This document shows positions 2,910 through 42,881 of a stretch of 64,000 nucleotides of DNA, piece by piece. The DNA is taken from assembly GCF_030128875.1 (NCBI RefSeq), contig NZ_CP124620.1, forward strand, positions 1,178,001 to 1,242,000, in the 5' to 3' direction. The stretch is from Stenotrophomonas sp. BIO128-Bstrain. Lineage in GTDB: Bacteria > Pseudomonadota > Gammaproteobacteria > Xanthomonadales > Xanthomonadaceae. The stretch's first letter is position 1; every line of letters starts with the position of its first letter. A program made the translations under genes and the position numbers. The notes below the pieces were generated by a model. It was not told the DNA's origin, searched no databases, and worked only from the letters and a program-made list of their open reading frames with translations.

Positions 2910-3950
2910 ATGAATACCCGAGGCGATTACGCCCACCCCGAGCCCGTCGCTGCCGCGACCGTGGCCGTGGTCACCCCACCGCCGGTGGTGGATCTTCCAC
3001 GCGAGAGCGCCGTGTCATGGGGCGCGATCCTGGCCGGTGCCATCGCCGCAGCCGCGCTTTCGTTGATCCTGGTGATTCTCGGCGTGGGCCTGGGCCTGTC
3101 GTCGGTCTCGCCGTGGTCGTTTGAGGGCGTGACTGCCGAGACCTTCGGCTGGTCCAGCATTGCCTGGTTGACCTTCACCGCCATCGCGGCCTCCGGCCTG
3201 GGTGGCTATCTGGCCGGTCGCCTGCGCACGAAGTGGAGCAACCTGCACGGCGATGAGACCTACTTCCGCGATACCGCACATGGTTTCGTGTCGTGGGCGG
3301 TGGCCACCCTGCTGACCGCCGCACTGCTGACCTCCGCGATCGGCGGCATTCTCGGCGCTGGCGCCAAGGTGGCCGGTGCCACCGCAGGTGCGGCGGCGTC
3401 CACTGCCGGCGGTATTGCCGCAGCGGGCGCAGGCTCGGCCGCAATGGGCAACGAAGAGGGTGACGTGCAGTACTGGGTGGATTCGCTGTTCCGTGCCAAC
3501 CCGACCTCAGCGCAGCCCGCGCCGCCGGTGGGTCCGGCCGATGCAGCGGCGCCCCCGGCACCGCCGGTCAACGGCGCACCGCCGCCGCCGCGCCCGATGC
3601 CGGGTGCCGACCGTCGTGCGGACAGCCGTGAGGTGCGTACCGAGGTCAATCGCATCATCGTCAACAGCCTCAAGTCCGACACCATGGACCCGGCCGATAC
3701 CCAGTACCTGGGCCAGCTGGTGGCGGCACAGACCGGCATGAGCCAGGCCGAGGCACAGGCCCGCGTGACCGATGTCCAGACCCGCCTGCGCGCTGCGCTG
3801 GACAACGCCAAGCAGCAGGCCAAGGAGGCGGCCGACGATGCCCGCAAGGCGACCGCCTATGCCGCGCTGTGGCTGTTCATCACGCTGCTGATCGGTGCCT
3901 TCATCGCCAGCCTGAGTGCCACCTGGGGCGGCCGTCGCCGCGACCTGTGA
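2910..3950 (+). CDS. Hypothetical membrane protein with Ala/Pro-rich linker
   Basis: 346 aa. The ATG at 2910 has AAGGAG at 2893-2898; a GTG at 2898 is an alternative. A Pro/Val-rich cytoplasmic start is followed by TM segments at about residues 35-60, 70-95 and 125-150, a Gly/Ala-rich stretch, a Pro-rich linker (~200-240), a charged helical region (~245-320) and a last TM near 325-340. Proteins of this layout are frequent near stress and membrane-homeostasis genes in Xanthomonadaceae, but I know no assigned function. The strong AGGAGG-type site after its stop starts the next mini-protein, so the two are probably one transcript ending at the hairpin at 4061. Confidence 0.75.
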   Translation: MNTRGDYAHPEPVAAATVAVVTPPPVVDLPRESAVSWGAILAGAIAAAALSLILVILGVGLGLSSVSPWSFEGVTAETFGWSSIAWLTFTAIAASGLGGYLAGRLRTKWSNLHGDETYFRDTAHGFVSWAVATLLTAALLTSAIGGILGAGAKVAGATAGAAASTAGGIAAAGAGSAAMGNEEGDVQYWVDSLFRANPTSAQPAPPVGPADAAAPPAPPVNGAPPPPRPMPGADRRADSREVRTEVNRIIVNSLKSDTMDPADTQYLGQLVAAQTGMSQAEAQARVTDVQTRLRAALDNAKQQAKEAADDARKATAYAALWLFITLLIGAFIASLSATWGGRRRDL

Positions 3951-4305: not shown

Positions 4306-5166
4306 ATGGCGGCTTTGCAGCAGCGCACGATCGATCTCATTCGCAGCCATCAAGAGCCCCTGCTGGCCGCATGGGCCGGCAATCTGGCCGGTTCCAGCCA
4401 GGCCCAGGACGGCCGCCTGTCCTCCCGCGAGCTGGACCAGCAGGTCCGCGAGTTCTGGCGTCTGTTCCTGGAGGCGCTGTCGGCTACGGAGGTCAGCTCC
4501 ATCGCACGGGTCGAGTGGCAGGACATCCGCCGCTTCCTGGAGGAACTTTCCCGCGAGCGCGTGCTGAAGGGCTTCAACTCGTCGGAGACCGCCAGCTTCA
4601 TCTTCTCGCTGAAGCGACCGCTGTTCGAGGTGATCCAGCAGGGCTACGTGAATGATCCGGCGCAGCTGGGCGACCAGTTGTGGGCGATCTCCGAGCTGAT
4701 CGACCAGTTGGGACTGCACACGGTCAGCGTGTTCCAGAAGACGCGCGAAGACGTGATCCAGCGCCAGCAGGAAGAGATGCTGGAGCTGTCCACGCCGGTG
4801 GTGAAGCTGTGGGAAGGCGTCCTCGCGCTGCCGATGATCGGCACGCTGGATTCGCAGCGCACCCAGGTGGTGATGGAATCGCTGCTGCAGCGCATCGTGG
4901 ATACCGGTTCGGAAATCGCGATCATCGATATCACCGGCGTGCCCACCGTGGACACGCTGGTCGCACAGCATCTGCTGAAGACCGTGACCGCCATCCGCCT
5001 GATGGGTGCCGATGCGATCATCAGTGGCGTGCGGCCGCAGATCGCCCAGACCATCGTGCACCTCGGGCTGGACCTGCAGGGCATCGTGACCAAGGCCAAC
5101 CTCGCCGACGCACTGGCACTGGCGCTCAAGCGCACCGGCCAGACCGTGACCCGGACTGCCCGCTGA
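4306..5166 (+). CDS. rsbR: RsbR-like stressosome sensor/co-antagonist
   Basis: 286 aa. Residues ~1-150 are an all-helical N-terminal sensor domain of the RsbR type. Residues ~160-280 are a STAS domain containing DITGVPTVDT and GVRPQIAQTIVHLG, which match the region carrying the phosphorylated threonines of Bacillus RsbR proteins. In the known system RsbR and RsbS form a large icosahedral complex that holds the kinase RsbT until stress. ATG 4306 was chosen because the product then begins directly with the helical domain; no strong Shine-Dalgarno is visible. It is the first gene of an operon running to 9728, with 1 base between its stop and the next ATG. Confidence 0.88.
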   Translation: MAALQQRTIDLIRSHQEPLLAAWAGNLAGSSQAQDGRLSSRELDQQVREFWRLFLEALSATEVSSIARVEWQDIRRFLEELSRERVLKGFNSSETASFIFSLKRPLFEVIQQGYVNDPAQLGDQLWAISELIDQLGLHTVSVFQKTREDVIQRQQEEMLELSTPVVKLWEGVLALPMIGTLDSQRTQVVMESLLQRIVDTGSEIAIIDITGVPTVDTLVAQHLLKTVTAIRLMGADAIISGVRPQIAQTIVHLGLDLQGIVTKANLADALALALKRTGQTVTRTAR

Positions 5167-5167
5167 G

Positions 5168-5539
5168 ATGGAACGCATCCCGATCCTGCAGATGGGCGAT
5201 CTGCTGCTGGTGACCATCCAGGTGGACATGCACGATTAGCTCGCGCTGACCCTGCAGGATGACCTCACCGAGAAGATCCGCAGCACCTCCGCGCGCGGCG
5301 TGCTGATCGATATTTCCGCACTGGATATCGTCGATTCGTTCATCGGCCGCATGATCGCGACCATTTCGTCGCTGGCCCGGATCATGGATGCCACCACGGT
5401 GGTGGTGGGCATGCAGCCGGCCGTGGCGATTACGCTGGTGGAGCTCGGCCTCACCCTCAGCGGCGTGCGCACCGCGCTCAACGTGGAGCGCGGCATGAAG
5501 CTGCTGCAGCGCACCGACGAAGACGAAGCGGCCTCATGA
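5168..5539 (+). pseudogene. rsbS: rsbS-like STAS gene interrupted by an in-frame amber codon
   Basis: Read from ATG 5168, the frame encodes MERIPILQMGDLLLVTIQ..., stops at TAG 5237-5239 (codon 24), then continues in the same frame with a full STAS domain to TGA 5537-5539. Removing the stop gives a 123-residue protein colinear with Bacillus RsbS, including the LDIVDSFIGR segment carrying the phospho-serine. The stop sits where Bacillus RsbS has Gln, so CAG to TAG is the simplest change. No start codon with a ribosome-binding site is evident just after the stop; a GTG at 5300 would give a 79-residue fragment missing the first strands. The end overlaps rsbT by ATGA. A sequencing error or suppression cannot be excluded. 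Confidence 0.8.
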
Positions 5540-5937
5540 GTGCCAACAGTGGTTCGCTGCCGATCCGCATCGAGCAGGATGTGGTGCTGGCCCGCCAGGC
5601 CGCGCGCCAGGTGTGCGTGGCCTGCAAGCTGCGCCTGATCGACCAGACCAAGCTGGTTACTGCCGCCAGTGAGCTGGCCCGCAACGCCGTGATCTACGGT
5701 GGCGGCGGGACGATGGACTGGGACGTGGTCGAGAGGGGGCTGCGCAAGGGCGTGCGGCTGGTCTTCGCCGACAACGGGCCGGGCATTCCGGATGTCGCGC
5801 AGGCGCTGACCGATGGCTGGTCGTCCGGCTCGGGCATGGGCCTGGGGCTGTCCGGCTCACGCCGGCTGGTGGATGAATTCGAGCTGGAGAGTGCGCCGGG
5901 GCAGGGCACCCGCATCACGATCACCAAATGGAGCTGA
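5536..5937 (+). CDS. rsbT: RsbT-like serine/threonine kinase (HATPase fold)
   Basis: 133 aa. A GHKL ATPase-type switch kinase: the N box appears as ASELARNAVIYGGGG, the G1 box as FADNGPGIPD, and a Gly-rich GSGMGLGLSGSRR lid follows. In the stressosome paradigm RsbT phosphorylates RsbR and RsbS, leaves the complex and then activates a downstream phosphatase. The ATG overlaps the stop of the rsbS frame by ATGA, so its translation is probably coupled to rsbS. The amber codon in rsbS might therefore also lower RsbT output. The stop overlaps the next gene by 10 bases. Confidence 0.9.
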   Translation: MSANSGSLPIRIEQDVVLARQAARQVCVACKLRLIDQTKLVTAASELARNAVIYGGGGTMDWDVVERGLRKGVRLVFADNGPGIPDVAQALTDGWSSGSGMGLGLSGSRRLVDEFELESAPGQGTRITITKWS

Positions 5938-6944
5938 ACTTCGCAGGCCAGGTAACGCGGGTCGTGGTGGTCGAAGAAACCTCACAGGTCGGACAGGCGC
6001 GACGCGAAGCGCTGGCACTGGCCGATCATGTCGGCCTGGATGAAATGGACGCCGGCCGCGCGGCGCTGGTGGCGACCGAAATGGCGACCAACGTGCTCAA
6101 ACATGGGCGCGGTGGCCGCATGTACCTGTCCGTGGTCTGCGGCCGCGGCGGCAACGGGGTGGAGCTGTGCACCGTGGACGCCGGCCCGGGCTTTTCCCTG
6201 GCCGAGTGCCTTCCGGACGGGTATTCGACCGGCGGCACCCAGGGCCTCGGGCTGGGCGCGATCCAGCGCCAGGCCAGCGTGCTCGATGCCTGGTCCGATG
6301 CCAAGGGGGCGGTGGTCGTGGCGCGGATCTACGCCAGCCGCACCCCGCGCGACATCGACGTGGCCTACGGCGCCCTGCGCCTGCCGATGCGCCACGAGCT
6401 GGCCTGCGGCGATGCATGGCATATCCGCGCAGACGCACGGACCGTGTCGCTCACGGTGATCGATGGCCTCGGCCACGGGCTTCCTGCGGCCGATGCTGCG
6501 TGGGCCGGTGTGGATGCGGTCGCGCATTCTGCCGCGGGCGGCGCACCGGCGTTGATCGGCGTGCTGCATGCCGGTATGTCCGGTACCCGGGGTGGCGCGG
6601 CAGCGGTGGCCTGCGTGGATGTGGCGACGGGCCAGGTGGAGTTCGCCGGCATCGGCAACATCGCCGCCAGCCTGTGCGAGCCCACCAGTTCGCGTGGGTT
6701 GGCCTCGCACCCGGGGATCGTGGGTGTGCAGTACCGCAAGGCACAACCATTCCATTTTCACGCGGCCACAGGCACGCTGCTGGTCATGCACAGCGATGGA
6801 CTACAGGCGCGTTGGAGCCTGCGTGATTACCCCGGCCTGTTCCACCGTCATCCAGCAGTGATCGTGGCGGTGCTGCAGCGTGATTTTGATCGTGGCCGGG
6901 ATGACGCCGGCATTGTTGCCCTGCGTCTTGGAGATCTGCATTGA
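5928..6944 (+). CDS. HATPase + PP2C (SpoIIE/RsbX-like) phosphatase
   Basis: 338 aa. Residues ~1-135 form an RsbT/RsbW-like ATP-binding domain (TEMATNVLKHG, DAGPGF, GTQGLGLGAI). Residues ~150-335 form a PP2C-type SpoIIE phosphatase with acidic metal ligands at GDAW, IDGLGHG, HSDGL and the terminal DDAGIVAL. By analogy with RsbX it would dephosphorylate RsbR/RsbS and reset the complex; the fused ATPase could let it compete with RsbT. It is translated from an ATG inside rsbT and overlaps the next gene by 4 bases. The R-S-T-X order, followed by a two-component pair, resembles Gram-negative stressosome loci such as those of Vibrio. Confidence 0.88.
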   Translation: MELNFAGQVTRVVVVEETSQVGQARREALALADHVGLDEMDAGRAALVATEMATNVLKHGRGGRMYLSVVCGRGGNGVELCTVDAGPGFSLAECLPDGYSTGGTQGLGLGAIQRQASVLDAWSDAKGAVVVARIYASRTPRDIDVAYGALRLPMRHELACGDAWHIRADARTVSLTVIDGLGHGLPAADAAWAGVDAVAHSAAGGAPALIGVLHAGMSGTRGGAAAVACVDVATGQVEFAGIGNIAASLCEPTSSRGLASHPGIVGVQYRKAQPFHFHAATGTLLVMHSDGLQARWSLRDYPGLFHRHPAVIVAVLQRDFDRGRDDAGIVALRLGDLH

Positions 6945-7801
6945 GCGTCACCCCCAATGATGAGGAACTGCAGCGGCTGCGACTGGAAGCCGATGCGCTG
7001 CGTGCCGAGTTGGATGAAACCAATCAGGGCGTGCTCGCGCTGTATGCCGAGCTGGATCAGCAGGCCGAGCAGCTGCGCGAGGTCTCCGAGCTGAAGAGCC
7101 GGTTCCTGTCATACATGAGTCATGAGTTCCGCACGCCGCTGGGCTCGATCCTGAGCATGACGCGGCTGCTGGAAGACGGCATGGACGGCCCGCTGACCGA
7201 CGAGCAGCGCCGCCAGGTGCGCTTCATCAGCGCCTCCACCAGCGAGCTGCGCGAGATGGTGGACGACCTGTTGGACCTGGCCAAGATCGAGGCCGGGCGG
7301 ATCACCATTTCACCGGCCTGGTTCGACCTGATGGACCTGTTCTCGGCCCTGCGCGGCATGTTCCGCCCGCTGGTGGAAGGCAACCAGGTGGACCTGGTGT
7401 TCGAAGATCCGCCGGTGATGCCGTTGCTGTACACCGACGACAAGAAGCTGGCGCAGATCCTGCGCAACTTCATTTCCAACGCACTGAAGTTCACGCCCAA
7501 TGGGCAGGTGGTGGTGTCGACCCGGTTGGAAGGGGAGAGCGCCGTGCGCTTCAGTGTGCGCGATACCGGCATCGGCATCCCCGCCGAACTGCAGTCCACC
7601 CTGTTCGAGGATTTCGTGCAGGTGGATACACCGCTGCAGAAACGCCTGCGCGGCACCGGGCTGGGGTTGTCACTGTGCAAGCGCTTTGCCGAGCTGCTTG
7701 GTGGGCACGTCGGGGTCGAAAGTGAAATCGGCGCAGGCTCGGACTTCTATGTGGTGTTGCCGCTGACCTTGGCCACGGAGGCCGCGAATGGCGAACCCTG
7801 A
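6941..7801 (+). CDS. Soluble sensor histidine kinase of the stressosome operon
   Basis: 286 aa, TTG start (6941) overlapping the previous stop by TTGA. A short N-terminal coiled coil (~1-50) leads into HisKA with SHEFRTPLGSI (His near residue 66) and an HATPase_c domain with NFISNALKFT, DTGIGI and GTGLGLSLCKRFAE. There are no membrane segments or sensor domain, so input must come from partners, most likely the RsbT/RsbX-like proteins or the stressosome itself. The next gene, a receiver-containing protein, overlaps by 14 bases and is the obvious phosphotransfer partner. Confidence 0.9.
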   Translation: MSVTPNDEELQRLRLEADALRAELDETNQGVLALYAELDQQAEQLREVSELKSRFLSYMSHEFRTPLGSILSMTRLLEDGMDGPLTDEQRRQVRFISASTSELREMVDDLLDLAKIEAGRITISPAWFDLMDLFSALRGMFRPLVEGNQVDLVFEDPPVMPLLYTDDKKLAQILRNFISNALKFTPNGQVVVSTRLEGESAVRFSVRDTGIGIPAELQSTLFEDFVQVDTPLQKRLRGTGLGLSLCKRFAELLGGHVGVESEIGAGSDFYVVLPLTLATEAANGEP

Positions 7802-9728
7802 TCGCATCCTGGTGGTGGACGACAACGTAGCGACCCGCTATGCGGTGCGCCGGGTGCTCGAGCATCACGGGTTCCATGTCGAGGAAGCCGGTACCGGCGG
7901 GGAGGGGCTGGAACGTCTTGCCGAGCATGATTTCGATGCGCTGGTGCTGGATGTGAACCTGCCGGACATGAGTGGCTTCGATGTGGTCCGCCAGCTGCGC
8001 GAGAACGCACGCCTGCAGCTGCTGCCGGTGGTGCATGTCTCGGCGGCCTCGATCGCGACCGGCGACATGATCACCGGCCTCAACGCAGGCGCTGATGCGT
8101 ATCTGATCCATCCGGTGGACCCGGATGTGCTGCTGGCCACGCTGCGCAGCCTGCTGCGCGCCCGCCGCGCGGAGGAAGCGCTGCGCGAGACTGAAGCGCG
8201 CTTCCGCGAAATCTTCCGCCATATCAATGCGCCCATCGCGGTGCTCGATGCCGACCTCAACGCGCACGACGCCAACGACGCGTTCACCCGTCTACTGGGC
8301 CAGCAGATCGGTCCGGGCCAACTCGATCAGCTGCTTCAGGATCAGGCCGCGCCGCTGAGTGCGTTGAAGGTCGCCCTCGCCGAGGGCGAGCGCTGGCAGG
8401 GAACCTTCAGCCTTCGCGTCGGCGGTGCGATCCGCATGACCGAGTGGCGGGTGACTCCCTATCAGGCCGCCGGCCAGGGGCTGGTGCTGATCGAAGACAC
8501 GACCGAGCACCATGCGCGTGCCAACGAGCAGCGCCAGGAGCTGGAAAGCGCCACGTCCGAACTGGCCTTCCAGATCGCCGAACGCGAGCGCACCGAGATC
8601 GAGCTGATGCAGGCGCAGAAGATGGATGCGCTCGGCCAGCTCACCGGCGGCATCGCGCATGATTTCAACAACCTGCTGACCACGATCATCTCCGGGTTGG
8701 ACATGATCGAGATCGCCGCCTCCAGCGGTAAATGGGACAAGGCCTCGCGCTACGTCGAGATCGCCACCGGCTCGGCGCACCGTGCCGCGGCGCTGACCCA
8801 GCGCATGCTGGCCTTCGCGCGCAAACAACCGCTGGACCCGCAGACCTTCGACGTCGTTGCGCGGGTGCGCTCGCTGGAAGACATGCTGCAGCGCTCGATC
8901 GGGGAGAACATCGAGCTTGAACTGGAGCTGGGCCCGGAGCCGTTGATCGCGGTGGCCGACCCGAACCAGTTCGAGAACGTGATCCTCAACCTGGTCATCA
9001 ACGCCCGCGATGCGCTGGCCGGCCAAGGCCTGATCCGCATCCGCGCCGGGCGTGCGCAGATCGAGCGTGACCACGAACTGGCCCCGGGCCACTACATCAC
9101 GGTCACCGTCCTGGACAACGGGGTGGGCATTCCCACCGAGCTGCTGACCAAGGTGTTCGAGCCGTTCTTCACGACCAAGCCGCAGGGCGAGGGCACCGGG
9201 TTGGGGTTGTCGATGACCTACGGGTTCGCGCGTCAGTCCGGTGGCAGCGCACGCATCGCGAGCGAGCGTGGCGAGGGGACGGAAATCGAGCTGCTGCTGC
9301 CGGAGGGCCGGCTTCAGCCGGTCACCCAGGCATCGGTACCGGCACAGCTGCCCCGTGGCAGCGCCGAACGCATCCTGCTGGTGGACGATACCGATTCGGT
9401 GCGGATGATGGTCCGGGAGATGCTGGTCGAAGCCGGATACCAGGTGGTCGAGGCCATCAACGCGCAGCAGGCGCTGCTGGAACTGCATTCGGACCGTGAG
9501 CTGGACCTGCTGCTGTCCGACGTCGGCCTGCCCGGCATGAACGGCCGCGAGCTTGCCGATGCGGCCCGGGCCCTGCGGCCGCACCTGCCGGTGCTGTTCG
9601 TCACCGGCTATACGGAAAGCGCCGCTGTCCGCAATGAATTCCTCGGGCAGGGGATGTCCCTGCTGCCCAAGCCGTTCAGTGTCAACGAACTGCTGCGGGG
9701 CGTGCGGCAGATGTTCAACCCGGGCTGA
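7788..9728 (+). CDS. Receiver-PAS-kinase-receiver hybrid protein
   Basis: 646 aa. Order: receiver (~5-120, phospho-Asp in LDVNLPDMSG), PAS (~135-245), a linker helix, HisKA (~275-345 with GGIAHDFNNLL), HATPase_c (~385-510 with DNGVGI and GTGLGLSMTYG) and a second receiver (~525-645, SDVGLPGMNG). It overlaps the preceding kinase gene and ends the stressosome operon. In related Gram-negative loci the terminal receiver protein is the output and is often linked to c-di-GMP. Here there is no GGDEF domain, so output must go through phosphotransfer to another protein. Confidence 0.9.
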   Translation: MANPDRILVVDDNVATRYAVRRVLEHHGFHVEEAGTGGEGLERLAEHDFDALVLDVNLPDMSGFDVVRQLRENARLQLLPVVHVSAASIATGDMITGLNAGADAYLIHPVDPDVLLATLRSLLRARRAEEALRETEARFREIFRHINAPIAVLDADLNAHDANDAFTRLLGQQIGPGQLDQLLQDQAAPLSALKVALAEGERWQGTFSLRVGGAIRMTEWRVTPYQAAGQGLVLIEDTTEHHARANEQRQELESATSELAFQIAERERTEIELMQAQKMDALGQLTGGIAHDFNNLLTTIISGLDMIEIAASSGKWDKASRYVEIATGSAHRAAALTQRMLAFARKQPLDPQTFDVVARVRSLEDMLQRSIGENIELELELGPEPLIAVADPNQFENVILNLVINARDALAGQGLIRIRAGRAQIERDHELAPGHYITVTVLDNGVGIPTELLTKVFEPFFTTKPQGEGTGLGLSMTYGFARQSGGSARIASERGEGTEIELLLPEGRLQPVTQASVPAQLPRGSAERILLVDDTDSVRMMVREMLVEAGYQVVEAINAQQALLELHSDRELDLLLSDVGLPGMNGRELADAARALRPHLPVLFVTGYTESAAVRNEFLGQGMSLLPKPFSVNELLRGVRQMFNPG

Positions 9729-13749: not shown

Positions 13750-13898
13750 GCGGGTTACCTGTTCCTGTCCAAATCGCCGGCGGCTGCCGTGCAAATGAAT
13801 AAGAAGCTGGATCGCGCCCTGTCGCCATACACAAACTACGATTTTCTCGTAGGTGATTGCCGAGTCTGCAATCGTTGTTTTCTATTCCTGGAAGCCCG

Positions 13899-16616
13899 TC
13901 ACTGCGCGTGCCTCGGCGGCTTGTACTCGCATCGCGGATACCCCGAGCACGACTGGAACGCGCCATACGGCCCGGTGCGCGGCACGATCACGCCCACCCT
14001 GCAGGCCGGGCAGGCCTGCTCGTGGATGGTCTCACCCGCCATCGAGGTGACGCGCACCGCACCGTCATTGACCAGCTCGGTCAGGAAGGGCGAGCGCCGA
14101 CCCTGCACGGTGAACATCGCCACCGAGCGGCGCGCGCGCGTCAGTGCCACGTAGAACAGGCGGCGTTCTTCGCCCAGTGGATACGCATCGCTGTCCGGCA
14201 TCGCCAGCGCGAGCACGGGATCATCGGCGCGGGTGTTGGGAAAGCGCCGGTCCAGCATGCCGGGCAGGATCACATAGTCCGCCTCCATGCCTTTGGAGCG
14301 GTGCGCGGTGAGGAAGCTGACCTCCATGTGTTGGCCATGCCGTGCCCGCCACGTGGCCGGCAGCATCGCGCGGTCTGCGTTGTAGCGGCCGAGTACGAAC
14401 ACCGTGACCTTGCCATCGCGGCCGGGCGGCGCCTGGCCGGACAACAGCTGCTGGTGCAATCGCTCCAGATACTGCTCGACCGCTCCGGCCAGCCGGTCGC
14501 GCGAGGCGACCTGGTAGGCCTGCAGCGCCGCGCCGTACGCCGGGGTGACCGACTGGACGTCCTTCGGGATCTGCGCAGGGTTACGGGATACGAAGGCACT
14601 GGACACATCGCACAGCGCCTGCGGGCAGCGGAACGTCTGCTGCAGCTTGAGCACCTGGCCCTGACCGAACCAGTCCACGAAGCCGGTCATCACCGACACG
14701 TCCGCGCCGGCAAAGCGATTGATCGACTGCCAGTCGTCACCGACCGCGAACAGGTGTTTTCCCGGTGCCTGCACCAGTGCCCGGCACAGCCGCGCACGGG
14801 CGCGCGAGGCATCCTGGAATTCATCGGCCATCACCAGGTCGAAGGGAGCGACGTAGCGCCCCTGTTCGAGGTGCTCGGCGGCCTGGTTGAGCATGTCTTC
14901 GAAATCGATCCCGCCCTCGGCCACCAGCGCATCGTCCCAGCCTTCCAGGATCGGGACGATCAGCGCGAGGAAGAGGCGGTAGCGGTGCTTGAAGTGATCG
15001 TCGGGCAGGCGGCGCAGGCGCTCGACCATGTCCTCCACGTCCAGCGCGTTGCTCTTGGCGTGGCTGATGAAGGTGCGGACCAGGCCGATCAGGTCGCTGT
15101 CCGGCATCGGCGTCGCGCCGCCCTCGGGCAGGTCGCGGTCGGGATTCGGGTCCAGTTCGATACCGCGCTGCGACAAGGCCTCGCCCAACCGCACGAACAG
15201 TTCGCCGGTGCGCAACTGCAGCGGGGTGGTCTCGATCCGCTCGATGCCATCGCGGGCGCCCGGCTCGCCAGCGCGAGGCGCGGGCGCGCGGTCGTGTCCC
15301 GCCGGGGCGAGGTGGTCGTGATACAGCGCAATGCCGGGGTAATAGAAATCCGGGCGGTACTGGCGGTACGCATCGGTCCCGGCATCGAATGCATCGCGGC
15401 GTGCATAGGTGTACGCCACGCCGTTGTAGAACAGCCAGTCGGCGATCACGCACGCTTCGATGCTGCGCACGCGCTCGCCCTGCAGGGTACGCACATACCC
15501 CTGCCCATCCTTGTCCCACTCCTCGGCGTCCAGCGACCCGCCGGTGACCGGCAGGTCACGGCCGAACACCAGCCGGAACATGTCCCACTGGGTACGGAAG
15601 GCGAGCGAGCGGTCCTTGAGCTGGTCGATGATCTCGGCCAACCGATGGAAACCCTGGGTGGCATCGACCGCCCAGTCCGGCACCTGCGGCATCCGGCCGG
15701 TGGCCTGGGCGATGATGTGCCGGCCCAGCGCATGGAAGGTGCGCGCTTCCACCCGCACCTGATCCAGGCCGAGGCGCTGGAACGCGCGGTCCGCACGCGC
15801 CTGCAGCTCGGTGGCGGCTTCCTTGTTGAAGGCGAGCATGACGATGCGCTCGGGCGCGACCAGCCCGCGTTCGATGGCGTACGCCGCCTTGGCGACCATT
15901 GTGGAGGTTTTGCCCGAACCTGCTGCGGCCACCACCTGGACGCGGTTGTCGAAGCAGATCACCGCGCGGGCCTGCTCATCGGTGAGTGGCCGGCTTTCGA
16001 CGCGGTCCAGCAACGCACGGCTGGCGACCCGTTCGCGCGCCTGATGGACCTCATTGCGGCGCGCCCACATCGTTGGCCAGTCGGCCAGCCACAGCATCAG
16101 CGCTTCTTCGATCGCGGCCGGGTCGCCATCGAGCTGGCTGCGCAGGTCGGCATCATCGAACACCGTCCACAGCGCGTCCTCATCCAGGGGCAGGGTGGGG
16201 CGTGCCTGCAGCAGTGCCTGCTGCTGCTCGCAGGTCAGCCACAGCGATTCCTCGTCGGCCAGATCGGTAGCCGCCTGCACCTGGGCGAGCCAGTGCTGGA
16301 TGGCGGTGAGGGACTGCTGGAACAAGGCGACATGGTCGCGCTGGCGCTGCTTGCCGCTTCGCTCCTCCAGTGCCGACACCAGCAAGCGCGCGGACGCGGC
16401 GGGCAGGCCGCCGAGGATCAATGGTGGGTGCCCTTCACGATGGAGGCTCAGTCGTGCCCAGGGCAGGCGCGGGTACACCTGCAGTGCATCCAGCGGCGCG
16501 TGATACCGATGACCGTCAATGGTCAGTAGCAGCTGGTCGTCTTCCAGGCGCAGGCGCCAGTGCGGCGATCGCGTGAGGCGTTGACCCCAGTCGCTCGGGG
16601 CCCATTCGTACGTCAT
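13899..16616 (-). CDS. UvrD/HelD-type SF1 DNA helicase with C-terminal zinc finger
   Basis: 905 aa. An unusual ~215-residue N-terminal region precedes the SF1 core: Walker A AAAGSGKTSTMV (about residue 240), a QVRVEARTFHALG motif, Walker B VMADEFQDAS, FAVGDDWQSI, LTAHRSKGMEADYVI and YVALTRARR. The end carries a topoisomerase-type zinc ribbon with CPACRVG and SCSGYPRC. This layout is closest to helicase IV-like DNA repair helicases. ATG 16616 was chosen because the frame upstream to 16691 is low-complexity and runs into the terminator of the neighbouring gene. No partner genes are adjacent. Confidence 0.88.
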   Translation of the reverse strand: MTYEWAPSDWGQRLTRSPHWRLRLEDDQLLLTIDGHRYHAPLDALQVYPRLPWARLSLHREGHPPLILGGLPAASARLLVSALEERSGKQRQRDHVALFQQSLTAIQHWLAQVQAATDLADEESLWLTCEQQQALLQARPTLPLDEDALWTVFDDADLRSQLDGDPAAIEEALMLWLADWPTMWARRNEVHQARERVASRALLDRVESRPLTDEQARAVICFDNRVQVVAAAGSGKTSTMVAKAAYAIERGLVAPERIVMLAFNKEAATELQARADRAFQRLGLDQVRVEARTFHALGRHIIAQATGRMPQVPDWAVDATQGFHRLAEIIDQLKDRSLAFRTQWDMFRLVFGRDLPVTGGSLDAEEWDKDGQGYVRTLQGERVRSIEACVIADWLFYNGVAYTYARRDAFDAGTDAYRQYRPDFYYPGIALYHDHLAPAGHDRAPAPRAGEPGARDGIERIETTPLQLRTGELFVRLGEALSQRGIELDPNPDRDLPEGGATPMPDSDLIGLVRTFISHAKSNALDVEDMVERLRRLPDDHFKHRYRLFLALIVPILEGWDDALVAEGGIDFEDMLNQAAEHLEQGRYVAPFDLVMADEFQDASRARARLCRALVQAPGKHLFAVGDDWQSINRFAGADVSVMTGFVDWFGQGQVLKLQQTFRCPQALCDVSSAFVSRNPAQIPKDVQSVTPAYGAALQAYQVASRDRLAGAVEQYLERLHQQLLSGQAPPGRDGKVTVFVLGRYNADRAMLPATWRARHGQHMEVSFLTAHRSKGMEADYVILPGMLDRRFPNTRADDPVLALAMPDSDAYPLGEERRLFYVALTRARRSVAMFTVQGRRSPFLTELVNDGAVRVTSMAGETIHEQACPACRVGVIVPRTGPYGAFQSCSGYPRCEYKPPRHAQ

Positions 16617-16700
16617 CGGTGTTCCAGGTGCGGCCCTCGTTGCGGCCGTGGCCGGAACAGCATGGGTGGCGCGGTTTGATCGGATGCCCATGATAGGGGA

Positions 16701-41720: not shown

Positions 41721-42881
41721 ATGACCACGGCGGGCAGCGGCAGCAGCGCAGGCGACGTAGAGGCCCTTGCGCGGCAGTATTTCAGTGCGTGGGGCGATGC
41801 CCTGCGGCACGCCGCAGCGCCGCCGGGCCAGGCGGCCGGCCCCGAGGGACAGGGAAACTGGCAGCAGGCGATCGACTGGTGGGCGCAGATGATGCCCAAC
41901 GCCGCCAGTGGGCCGGCCGACGAGGCGGTGCACCGTTTCCGTGAACAGGCCGGTGGCTGGTACGGCACCATGCAGCAGGTGGCGGCCCAGTTCGCCGGCC
42001 GCGACACCACCAGCGCCGAAGTCGCGCAGGCGTGGCGCACGGCGGTGCTGGGGCAGGGCGACGGGCTGCTGCAGTGGATGCTGCAGGGCGCCCGTGGTCA
42101 TACCCAGGCCGAAGGCCCGGACCTGCTGCAGCTGCTGGAAACCCTGCAGCGCCAGCTCGGCCCGTGGCTGCAGAGCCCGGCGTTCGGCCCCGGCCGCGAG
42201 CATCAGGCCCGCTGGCAGGCACTGCTGCGGGCGCAGCAGGACTACCAGGCGCACTCGCGCGATTACGTGGAGCAGATCAAGCAGGCGCTGGACGATGCGT
42301 TCACCCTGTTCGAGCAGCGCCTGGCCGAACACGAACAGCCGGGCAATCAGTTGACCAGTGCACGGGCGATGTTCGATCTGTGGATCGACGCGGCCGAAGA
42401 GGCCTACGCGAAGGTCGCGCTGTCCGAACCGTTCCAGGCGGTCTACGCCGCGCTCGGTAACGCCCAGATGCGGCTGCGCGCGGCAACCCAGCAGGAAATC
42501 GAACGGCTGACCGAGGGCTTCGGCCTGCCGACACGCACGGAAATGGATGCGGCACACCGCCGCATCGCCGAGTTGGAGCGGTTGGTGCGGCGCATGGCCG
42601 GCGGCGCAGGCGATGGCAGGCCGGCCACCCGGCCGGCCGCCTCGAAGAAGACAGCTCCGACGAAGTCAGCTCCGAAGAAAGCAGCTCCGAAGAAGTCCGC
42701 TCCGAAGAAGGCAGCCGCGAAGAAGGCAGCCGCGAAGCAGGCAGCCCCGAAGAAGGCGGCACCAGAACAGAGCAAGGCACCCAAACCTGCGAAGACGGCG
42801 AAAGCCGCTGAAGCCGCGAAAACCGCTACAGCCACCCAACCGGTGAAGGCCGCCGCCAAACCCCGGAAACGCAGCGCATGA
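41721..42881 (+). CDS. phaE: PhaE subunit of class III PHA synthase with histone-like tail
   Basis: 386 aa. Residues ~1-290 match PhaE: FSAWGDALRHAA start, YVEQIKQALDDAFTLFEQRL and a WIDAAEEAYAKVALSEPF box. The last ~85 residues (~305-386) are a Lys/Ala/Pro tail of KKA, KSAPKK and AKPRKRS repeats, resembling the histone-H1-like tail of the phasin PhaF. The tail may bind DNA and tie granules to the nucleoid. It is encoded by near-repeats of about 15 bases (42650-42760). Its stop overlaps phaC by ATGA. Confidence 0.9.
   Translation: MTTAGSGSSAGDVEALARQYFSAWGDALRHAAAPPGQAAGPEGQGNWQQAIDWWAQMMPNAASGPADEAVHRFREQAGGWYGTMQQVAAQFAGRDTTSAEVAQAWRTAVLGQGDGLLQWMLQGARGHTQAEGPDLLQLLETLQRQLGPWLQSPAFGPGREHQARWQALLRAQQDYQAHSRDYVEQIKQALDDAFTLFEQRLAEHEQPGNQLTSARAMFDLWIDAAEEAYAKVALSEPFQAVYAALGNAQMRLRAATQQEIERLTEGFGLPTRTEMDAAHRRIAELERLVRRMAGGAGDGRPATRPAASKKTAPTKSAPKKAAPKKSAPKKAAAKKAAAKQAAPKKAAPEQSKAPKPAKTAKAAEAAKTATATQPVKAAAKPRKRSA

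What the first reader, a model, noticed from the sequence alone, without database searches (positions are those of the whole stretch)
5168..5539. Amber codon inside the rsbS gene of an otherwise complete stressosome operon
Seen: TAG at 5237-5239 in frame, with the STAS domain continuing to TGA 5537-5539. Known: RsbS is the scaffold that holds RsbT. Inference: either the strain has lost RsbS control (RsbT constitutively free), or a suppressor/readthrough makes low RsbS, or a C-to-T sequencing error. All the other genes are intact and overlapping, so a loss would be recent.
Basis: partly seen in the sequence, partly recalled or inferred. Interest (0 to 1): 0.75.

Follow-up and report, generated by a model that had tools for sequence, protein, structure and literature searches.

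The report
Private stop codon disables rsbS
One sequenced Stenotrophomonas-type bacterium carries a recent premature stop near the start of a stress-signalling gene that is intact in the relatives examined; this most likely switches the stress-sensing complex off in that strain and is an ordinary loss-of-function mutation.

Summary
In detail: an in-frame TAG at 5237-5239 is codon 24 of a 123-residue rsbS inside an otherwise intact operon (rsbR, rsbS, rsbT, an rsbX-like gene, histidine kinase, hybrid response regulator). Relatives settle most of it. rsbS is found in 29 of 91 genus genomes, and only this genome has a stop in it. A second genome of the same species, 98.8% identical over the 40 kb block holding the operon, is intact. 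At the same codon 80 of 80 loci kept from titled genome records have a sense codon. So it is a recent, private substitution (or a base error), not a conserved recoding site. None of 65 tRNA matches has the amber-reading anticodon. A Listeria rsbS premature-stop mutant is described as polar on RsbT translation (PMC8942246). Expected state: stressosome off. No reads or expression data could be checked. Ordinary; low interest.

The parts
4306..5166 (+). rsbR: RsbRD_N sensor domain plus STAS domain (286 aa), intact
   Evidence: Pfam PF14361 and PF01740
5168..5539 (+). rsbS: single STAS domain, 124 codons, interrupted at codon 24
   Evidence: with the intact relative P0001
5237..5239 (+). in-frame TAG, private to this genome among those examined
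5536..5539 (+). ATGA overlap of the rsbS stop and the rsbT start, present in 29 of 29 genomes
5536..5937 (+). rsbT: switch kinase (HATPase_c), intact
   Evidence: found in 29 of 91 genus genomes, the same 29 as rsbS
5928..6944 (+). rsbX-like gene: HATPase_c_2 domain fused to a SpoIIE/PP2C phosphatase domain, intact
6941..7801 (+). sensor histidine kinase (HisKA, HATPase_c), likely output partner
   Evidence: role inferred from position
7788..9728 (+). hybrid kinase with two receiver domains, PAS, HisKA and HATPase_c, likely output partner
   Evidence: role inferred from position

Best explanation
A recent, strain-private nonsense substitution makes rsbS a null allele. The first 23 residues are made and released; the STAS domain is not made. 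The rsbT start codon uses the last base of the last sense codon of rsbS and the first two bases of its stop (ATGA), and no Shine-Dalgarno-like 4-mer was seen in the 20 bases before it, so most RsbT synthesis should be lost as well, possibly with instability of the untranslated mRNA. The stressosome is then not assembled and the downstream kinases lose RsbT input: module off. Shown: the stop, its privacy, intact neighbours, the conserved overlap. Inferred: loss of RsbT, loss of the complex, effect on the kinases.
For: Only 1 of 29 rsbS-bearing genus genomes has a stop, and it is this one; 80 of 80 titled-record loci have a sense codon there. Same-species genome G045 is intact, 98.8% identical over 40,199 aligned bases. 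The six operon genes align ungapped to G045. Polarised on outgroups, resolved changes on this lineage over six genes are 19 silent and 4 not silent including the stop, against 16 and 7 on the G045 lineage, 12 codons unresolved: no sign of long decay. ATGA overlap in 29 of 29, and its ATG opens an RsbT homologue in 29 of 29. rsbT was not found without rsbS: identical sets of 29 of 91 genomes. No second RsbS found: PF01740 finds three places in the genome, rsbR, rsbS and one in a 525-residue frame. A Listeria rsbS premature stop is described as polar on RsbT (PMC8942246, legend passage). In E. coli 4 of 5 native four-base-overlap pairs showed coupling (PMC6728339, section 8 read).
Against: No expression data. 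One of the 5 E. coli pairs (bioBF) was not coupled although its Shine-Dalgarno motif is very weak, and menDH kept nearly 40% independent initiation, so RsbT could persist. Six of 29 genomes do have a Shine-Dalgarno-like 4-mer before rsbT. Twelve in-frame ATG/GTG codons lie after the stop, so a shortened RsbS is possible. A base error cannot be excluded.
Confidence: 0.6

Rival explanations
1. Base-calling or assembly error; the strain has intact rsbS.
For: The change is a single substitution seen in one assembly only.
Against: The genome is one contig, 100% complete. Among 42 genes matched to G045 over about 58 kb, after dropping two stop differences judged to lie before the true gene starts, there was one other frame-breaking difference, at the very end of a gene, so error is not rampant here. 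Reads were not available.
Confidence: 0.17
2. RsbS is lost but RsbT is still made, so RsbT is unrestrained and drives the downstream kinases permanently.
For: rsbT and the later genes are intact; some overlapping pairs initiate independently (1 of 5 fully, 1 of 5 partly). RsbS substitutions that abolish kinase binding are cited as locking the stressosome on in B. subtilis and for the Moorella homologue (PMC8942246 discussion passage).
Against: Conserved ATGA overlap and no Shine-Dalgarno-like 4-mer before rsbT here; Listeria rsbS premature stop polar on RsbT; the same paper calls constitutive activity deleterious.
Confidence: 0.13
3. Some RsbS is made by read-through, suppression or restart.
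For: The sequence after the stop is identical in protein to four other genomes, so it was conserved until very recently; this fits a very young null allele equally well.
Against: No tRNA with the amber-reading anticodon among 65 matches (tRNA-Ala(UGC) was not seen and the one tRNA-Ile call is doubtful, so rRNA-operon tRNAs may be missing). No other amber break among 42 matched genes. No relative examined has the stop. TAG still ends 6 of 51 genes called in and beside the window.
Confidence: 0.08

Closest known systems
RsbRSTX stressosome module of the Gram-negative Vibrio vulnificus (PMC9237108, passages read); V. brasiliensis RsbR/S/T (PMC4976288, passages read)
   Same: rsbR-rsbS-rsbT-rsbX without sigB, with a two-component protein encoded directly downstream (V. 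vulnificus); RsbR/RsbS/RsbT biochemistry known from V. brasiliensis.
   Different: RsbR here has an RsbRD_N domain, theirs a globin or haem sensor; the rsbX-like protein here carries an extra HATPase_c_2 domain where theirs is a single PP2C domain; DSFI serine kept here, while B. subtilis RsbS sites are reported not conserved in V. brasiliensis; rsbS is interrupted here.
Listeria monocytogenes mutants: laboratory rsbS frameshift strain (PMC8942246, passages) and natural sigB-operon loss mutations (PMC13068326, abstract and passages)
   Same: Loss-of-function change in a stressosome-pathway gene; in the rsbS strain a premature stop polar on RsbT.
   Different: Different phylum; output is SigB there and presumably a kinase pair here; the passages seen do not describe a natural rsbS nonsense allele.

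Membership tests
RsbS (stressosome scaffold) | Single STAS domain of about 120 residues homologous to RsbS of solved stressosomes | tested here: met
   P0001, the intact copy of G013 whose residues after the stop are identical to the window's: 6qcm RsbS, E 2.2e-32 over residues 3-114
RsbS (stressosome scaffold) | Phosphorylatable serine in the DSFI motif | tested here: met
   DSFI present in the window after the stop (ORF 5300-5539) and aligned to DSFI of 6qcm; phosphorylation itself not testable
RsbS (stressosome scaffold) | Uninterrupted reading frame | tested here: not met
   TAG at codon 24: a broken member
rsbRSTX stressosome module | Adjacent rsbR, rsbS, rsbT and an RsbX-type PP2C phosphatase | tested here: met
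   Pfam hits in order; no NCBIfam model reached its cut-off for these four
rsbRSTX stressosome module | Assembly into an RsbR-RsbS-RsbT complex | not testable with these tools
   needs protein work
Amber suppression or recoding | tRNA able to read UAG | tested here: not met
   No such anticodon among 65 RF00005 matches / 66 ARAGORN genes; survey may miss rRNA-operon tRNAs
Amber suppression or recoding | Stop conserved in relatives | tested here: not met
   0 of 28 other genus genomes, 0 of 80 titled loci
Translational coupling by termination-reinitiation | Overlapping stop and start codons, conserved | tested here: met
   ATGA in 29 of 29, ATG opens an RsbT homologue in 29 of 29
Translational coupling by termination-reinitiation | Downstream translation depends on upstream translation | not testable with these tools
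   needs a reporter

The most novel reading that the evidence does not exclude
The stop is a selected, tuned allele: RsbS and RsbT are dosed differently by residual read-through and independent rsbT initiation, leaving the strain with a permanently signalling RsbT-driven two-component pathway, a natural 'stressosome-on' state in a Gram-negative bacterium.
Probability: 0.06. Interest if true: 0.55.

Novelty: new member of a known kind. Interest (0 to 1): 0.2.

Why it matters
If the base is real, the strain is a natural stressosome mutant with an intact same-species partner for comparison, useful for asking what the little-studied RsbRSTX-kinase modules of this group control. The broader point is the conserved rsbS-rsbT overlap: in this genus premature stops in rsbS should be read as likely loss of both proteins, not as release of RsbT.

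Tried and rejected
Amber suppressor: rejected for the 65 tRNA matches found. Conserved programmed read-through: rejected, no relative examined has the stop. UV-type tandem mutation with the neighbouring silent site: rejected, the silent state of codon 23 is shared with G045, and 0 of 58 adjacent pairs among 981 differences had that form in this direction. Second rsbS copy compensating: not found at the sensitivity. Relaxed selection in the rest of the operon: no excess seen, few changes. Truncated RsbS in protein databases: the 120 hits listed of 8000 scored are all 113 residues or longer; weak evidence because clusters show one representative. Two of the three 'stop changes' (window 4195 and 44361) lie upstream of the starts judged true and were dropped as over-long gene calls; gene starts were not tested. 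Papers: the search for stressosome with Stenotrophomonas gave one paper (listing only), on a phage; so that search of that library found no paper on this operon in this genus.

It confirmed that the overlap ATG opens an RsbT homologue in 29 of 29 genomes, full length or nearly so in 28; in G015 (83% complete, fragmented) the homology from that start stops after about 22 residues, so its rsbT frame looks broken there, although one search finds the rest of it without a stop. It also showed a Shine-Dalgarno-like 4-mer before rsbT in 6 of 29 genomes and not in this one.

Full report
What is there. The window lies on a 4,487,389-base single-contig genome. Its relatives identify the genus as Stenotrophomonas: the best titled match to the operon is S. 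maltophilia strain 13146 at 92.7% over 6,430 aligned bases; the species itself is named by no call. At 4306-9728 six genes overlap or abut: rsbR (RsbRD_N + STAS), rsbS (STAS), rsbT (HATPase_c), an rsbX-like gene (HATPase_c_2 + SpoIIE), a histidine kinase and a hybrid kinase with two receiver domains. In rsbS, TAG at 5237-5239 is codon 24 of 124. The part after it still scores as STAS and, in an intact relative, the gene matches RsbS of solved stressosomes (6qcm, E 2.2e-32). NCBIfam gave no match over a curated cut-off for RsbR, the intact relative's RsbS, RsbT and the RsbX-like protein; for the two kinases none of the 25 rows shown reached its cut-off. The gene names therefore rest on Pfam domains, order and the solved RsbS.

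Is it shared? No. A protein search of 91 genus genomes found rsbS in 29; 28 have no stop inside and this genome has one TAG. G045, marked as the same species, is intact. Over two colinear blocks this genome and G045 differ at 981 places, with 98.8% identity in the block holding the operon and 96.9% in the other. After the stop, RsbS is identical in protein to G045, G013, G068 and G089, while the gene shows 4 to 22 silent codon differences from them: purifying selection held until very recently. Polarising the differences from G045 on three outgroups, this lineage has 19 resolved silent and 4 resolved non-silent changes (stop included) in six genes, the G045 lineage 16 and 7; 12 codons were unresolved. 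Numbers are small, but there is no sign of decay. Non-silent changes on this lineage besides the stop are at RsbR position 115, RsbT position 67 and position 513 of the hybrid kinase; no effect can be inferred from them.

Is it read through? The genome has 65 tRNA matches over the cut-off. ARAGORN placed a gene on each of them and one further tRNA-Ser-like gene (66 by hand count), and none has the amber-reading anticodon. The survey did not show tRNA-Ala(UGC), and the one tRNA-Ile call covers an odd 100-base match, so genes inside rRNA operons may be missing from it. A simple gene caller (frames of 80 codons or more) found 44 genes in 60 kb of G045; 42 matched, 40 of them in full without gaps, and the only amber difference was in rsbS. 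So a suppressor strain or recoding is unlikely.

What it does. The anatomy argues otherwise. The rsbS stop and the rsbT start overlap as ATGA in 29 of 29 genus genomes, although the codons just before it vary, and the ATG of the overlap opens an RsbT homologue in 29 of 29, full length or nearly so in 28. In this genome no Shine-Dalgarno-like 4-mer lies in the 20 bases before rsbT; 6 of the 29 genomes have one. In E. coli, 4 of 5 native pairs with this overlap showed coupling, three strongly, one about 60%, one not at all, and full-length constructs with an early stop gave transcripts too unstable to measure (PMC6728339, section 8). [quoted passage not shown] At E 1e-30 rsbT was found in exactly the 29 of 91 genomes that have rsbS. 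The likeliest state is therefore loss of RsbS with much reduced RsbT: stressosome off. In RsbS-intact relatives the expected working is the known one: RsbR and RsbS hold RsbT, which phosphorylates them and is released to act on a partner (passages of PMC9237108); here the partner is presumably the adjacent kinase pair (inference; the Vibrio authors report failing to get a positive interaction between RsbT and the protein encoded directly downstream).

How surprising. Little. [quoted passage not shown] Loss mutations in Rsb regulators are said to arise readily in Listeria (PMC13068326, abstract and discussion passages). This is another instance, in another phylum, supported by one assembly only.

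Limits. No reads, expression or protein data. One genome per species is the rule in the collection; one further genome of this species was present. Gene starts were not tested beyond.

Noticed in passing
13882-16691 (- strand): A helicase-like gene (name recalled from its sequence, not searched) differs from the same-species genome by a one-base length difference near its 3' end, changing only the last residues.
   Followed up: partly
5928-6944: The rsbX-like protein joins an RsbW/RsbT-type ATPase domain to a SpoIIE phosphatase domain, unlike the single-domain RsbX described for globin-type modules.
   Followed up: no
4306-9728 and relatives: The operon is patchy: rsbS in 29 of 91 genus genomes. 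The neighbour gene at 2997-3947 lies close to it in the nearest relatives (such as G045, G068, G013, G022, G081) but far away in others on one contig, such as G090, so operon or neighbour has moved.
   Followed up: partly
L111 (own genome, 2,554,557-2,554,640): A second, low-scoring tRNA-Tyr-like gene (30.7 bits) besides the one in L107.
   Followed up: no
L110 (own genome, 1,608,245-1,608,344): A 100-base tRNA-like match that ARAGORN reads as a 73-base tRNA-Ile; possibly another kind of tRNA.
   Followed up: no
L081 (G015): RsbT homology from the overlap start stops after about 22 residues in this fragmented genome, so its rsbT looks frame-shifted.
   Followed up: no
41721-42881: A gene 89.6% identical in DNA to the same-species copy with a 30-base in-frame length difference, a locally more divergent patch.
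   Followed up: no
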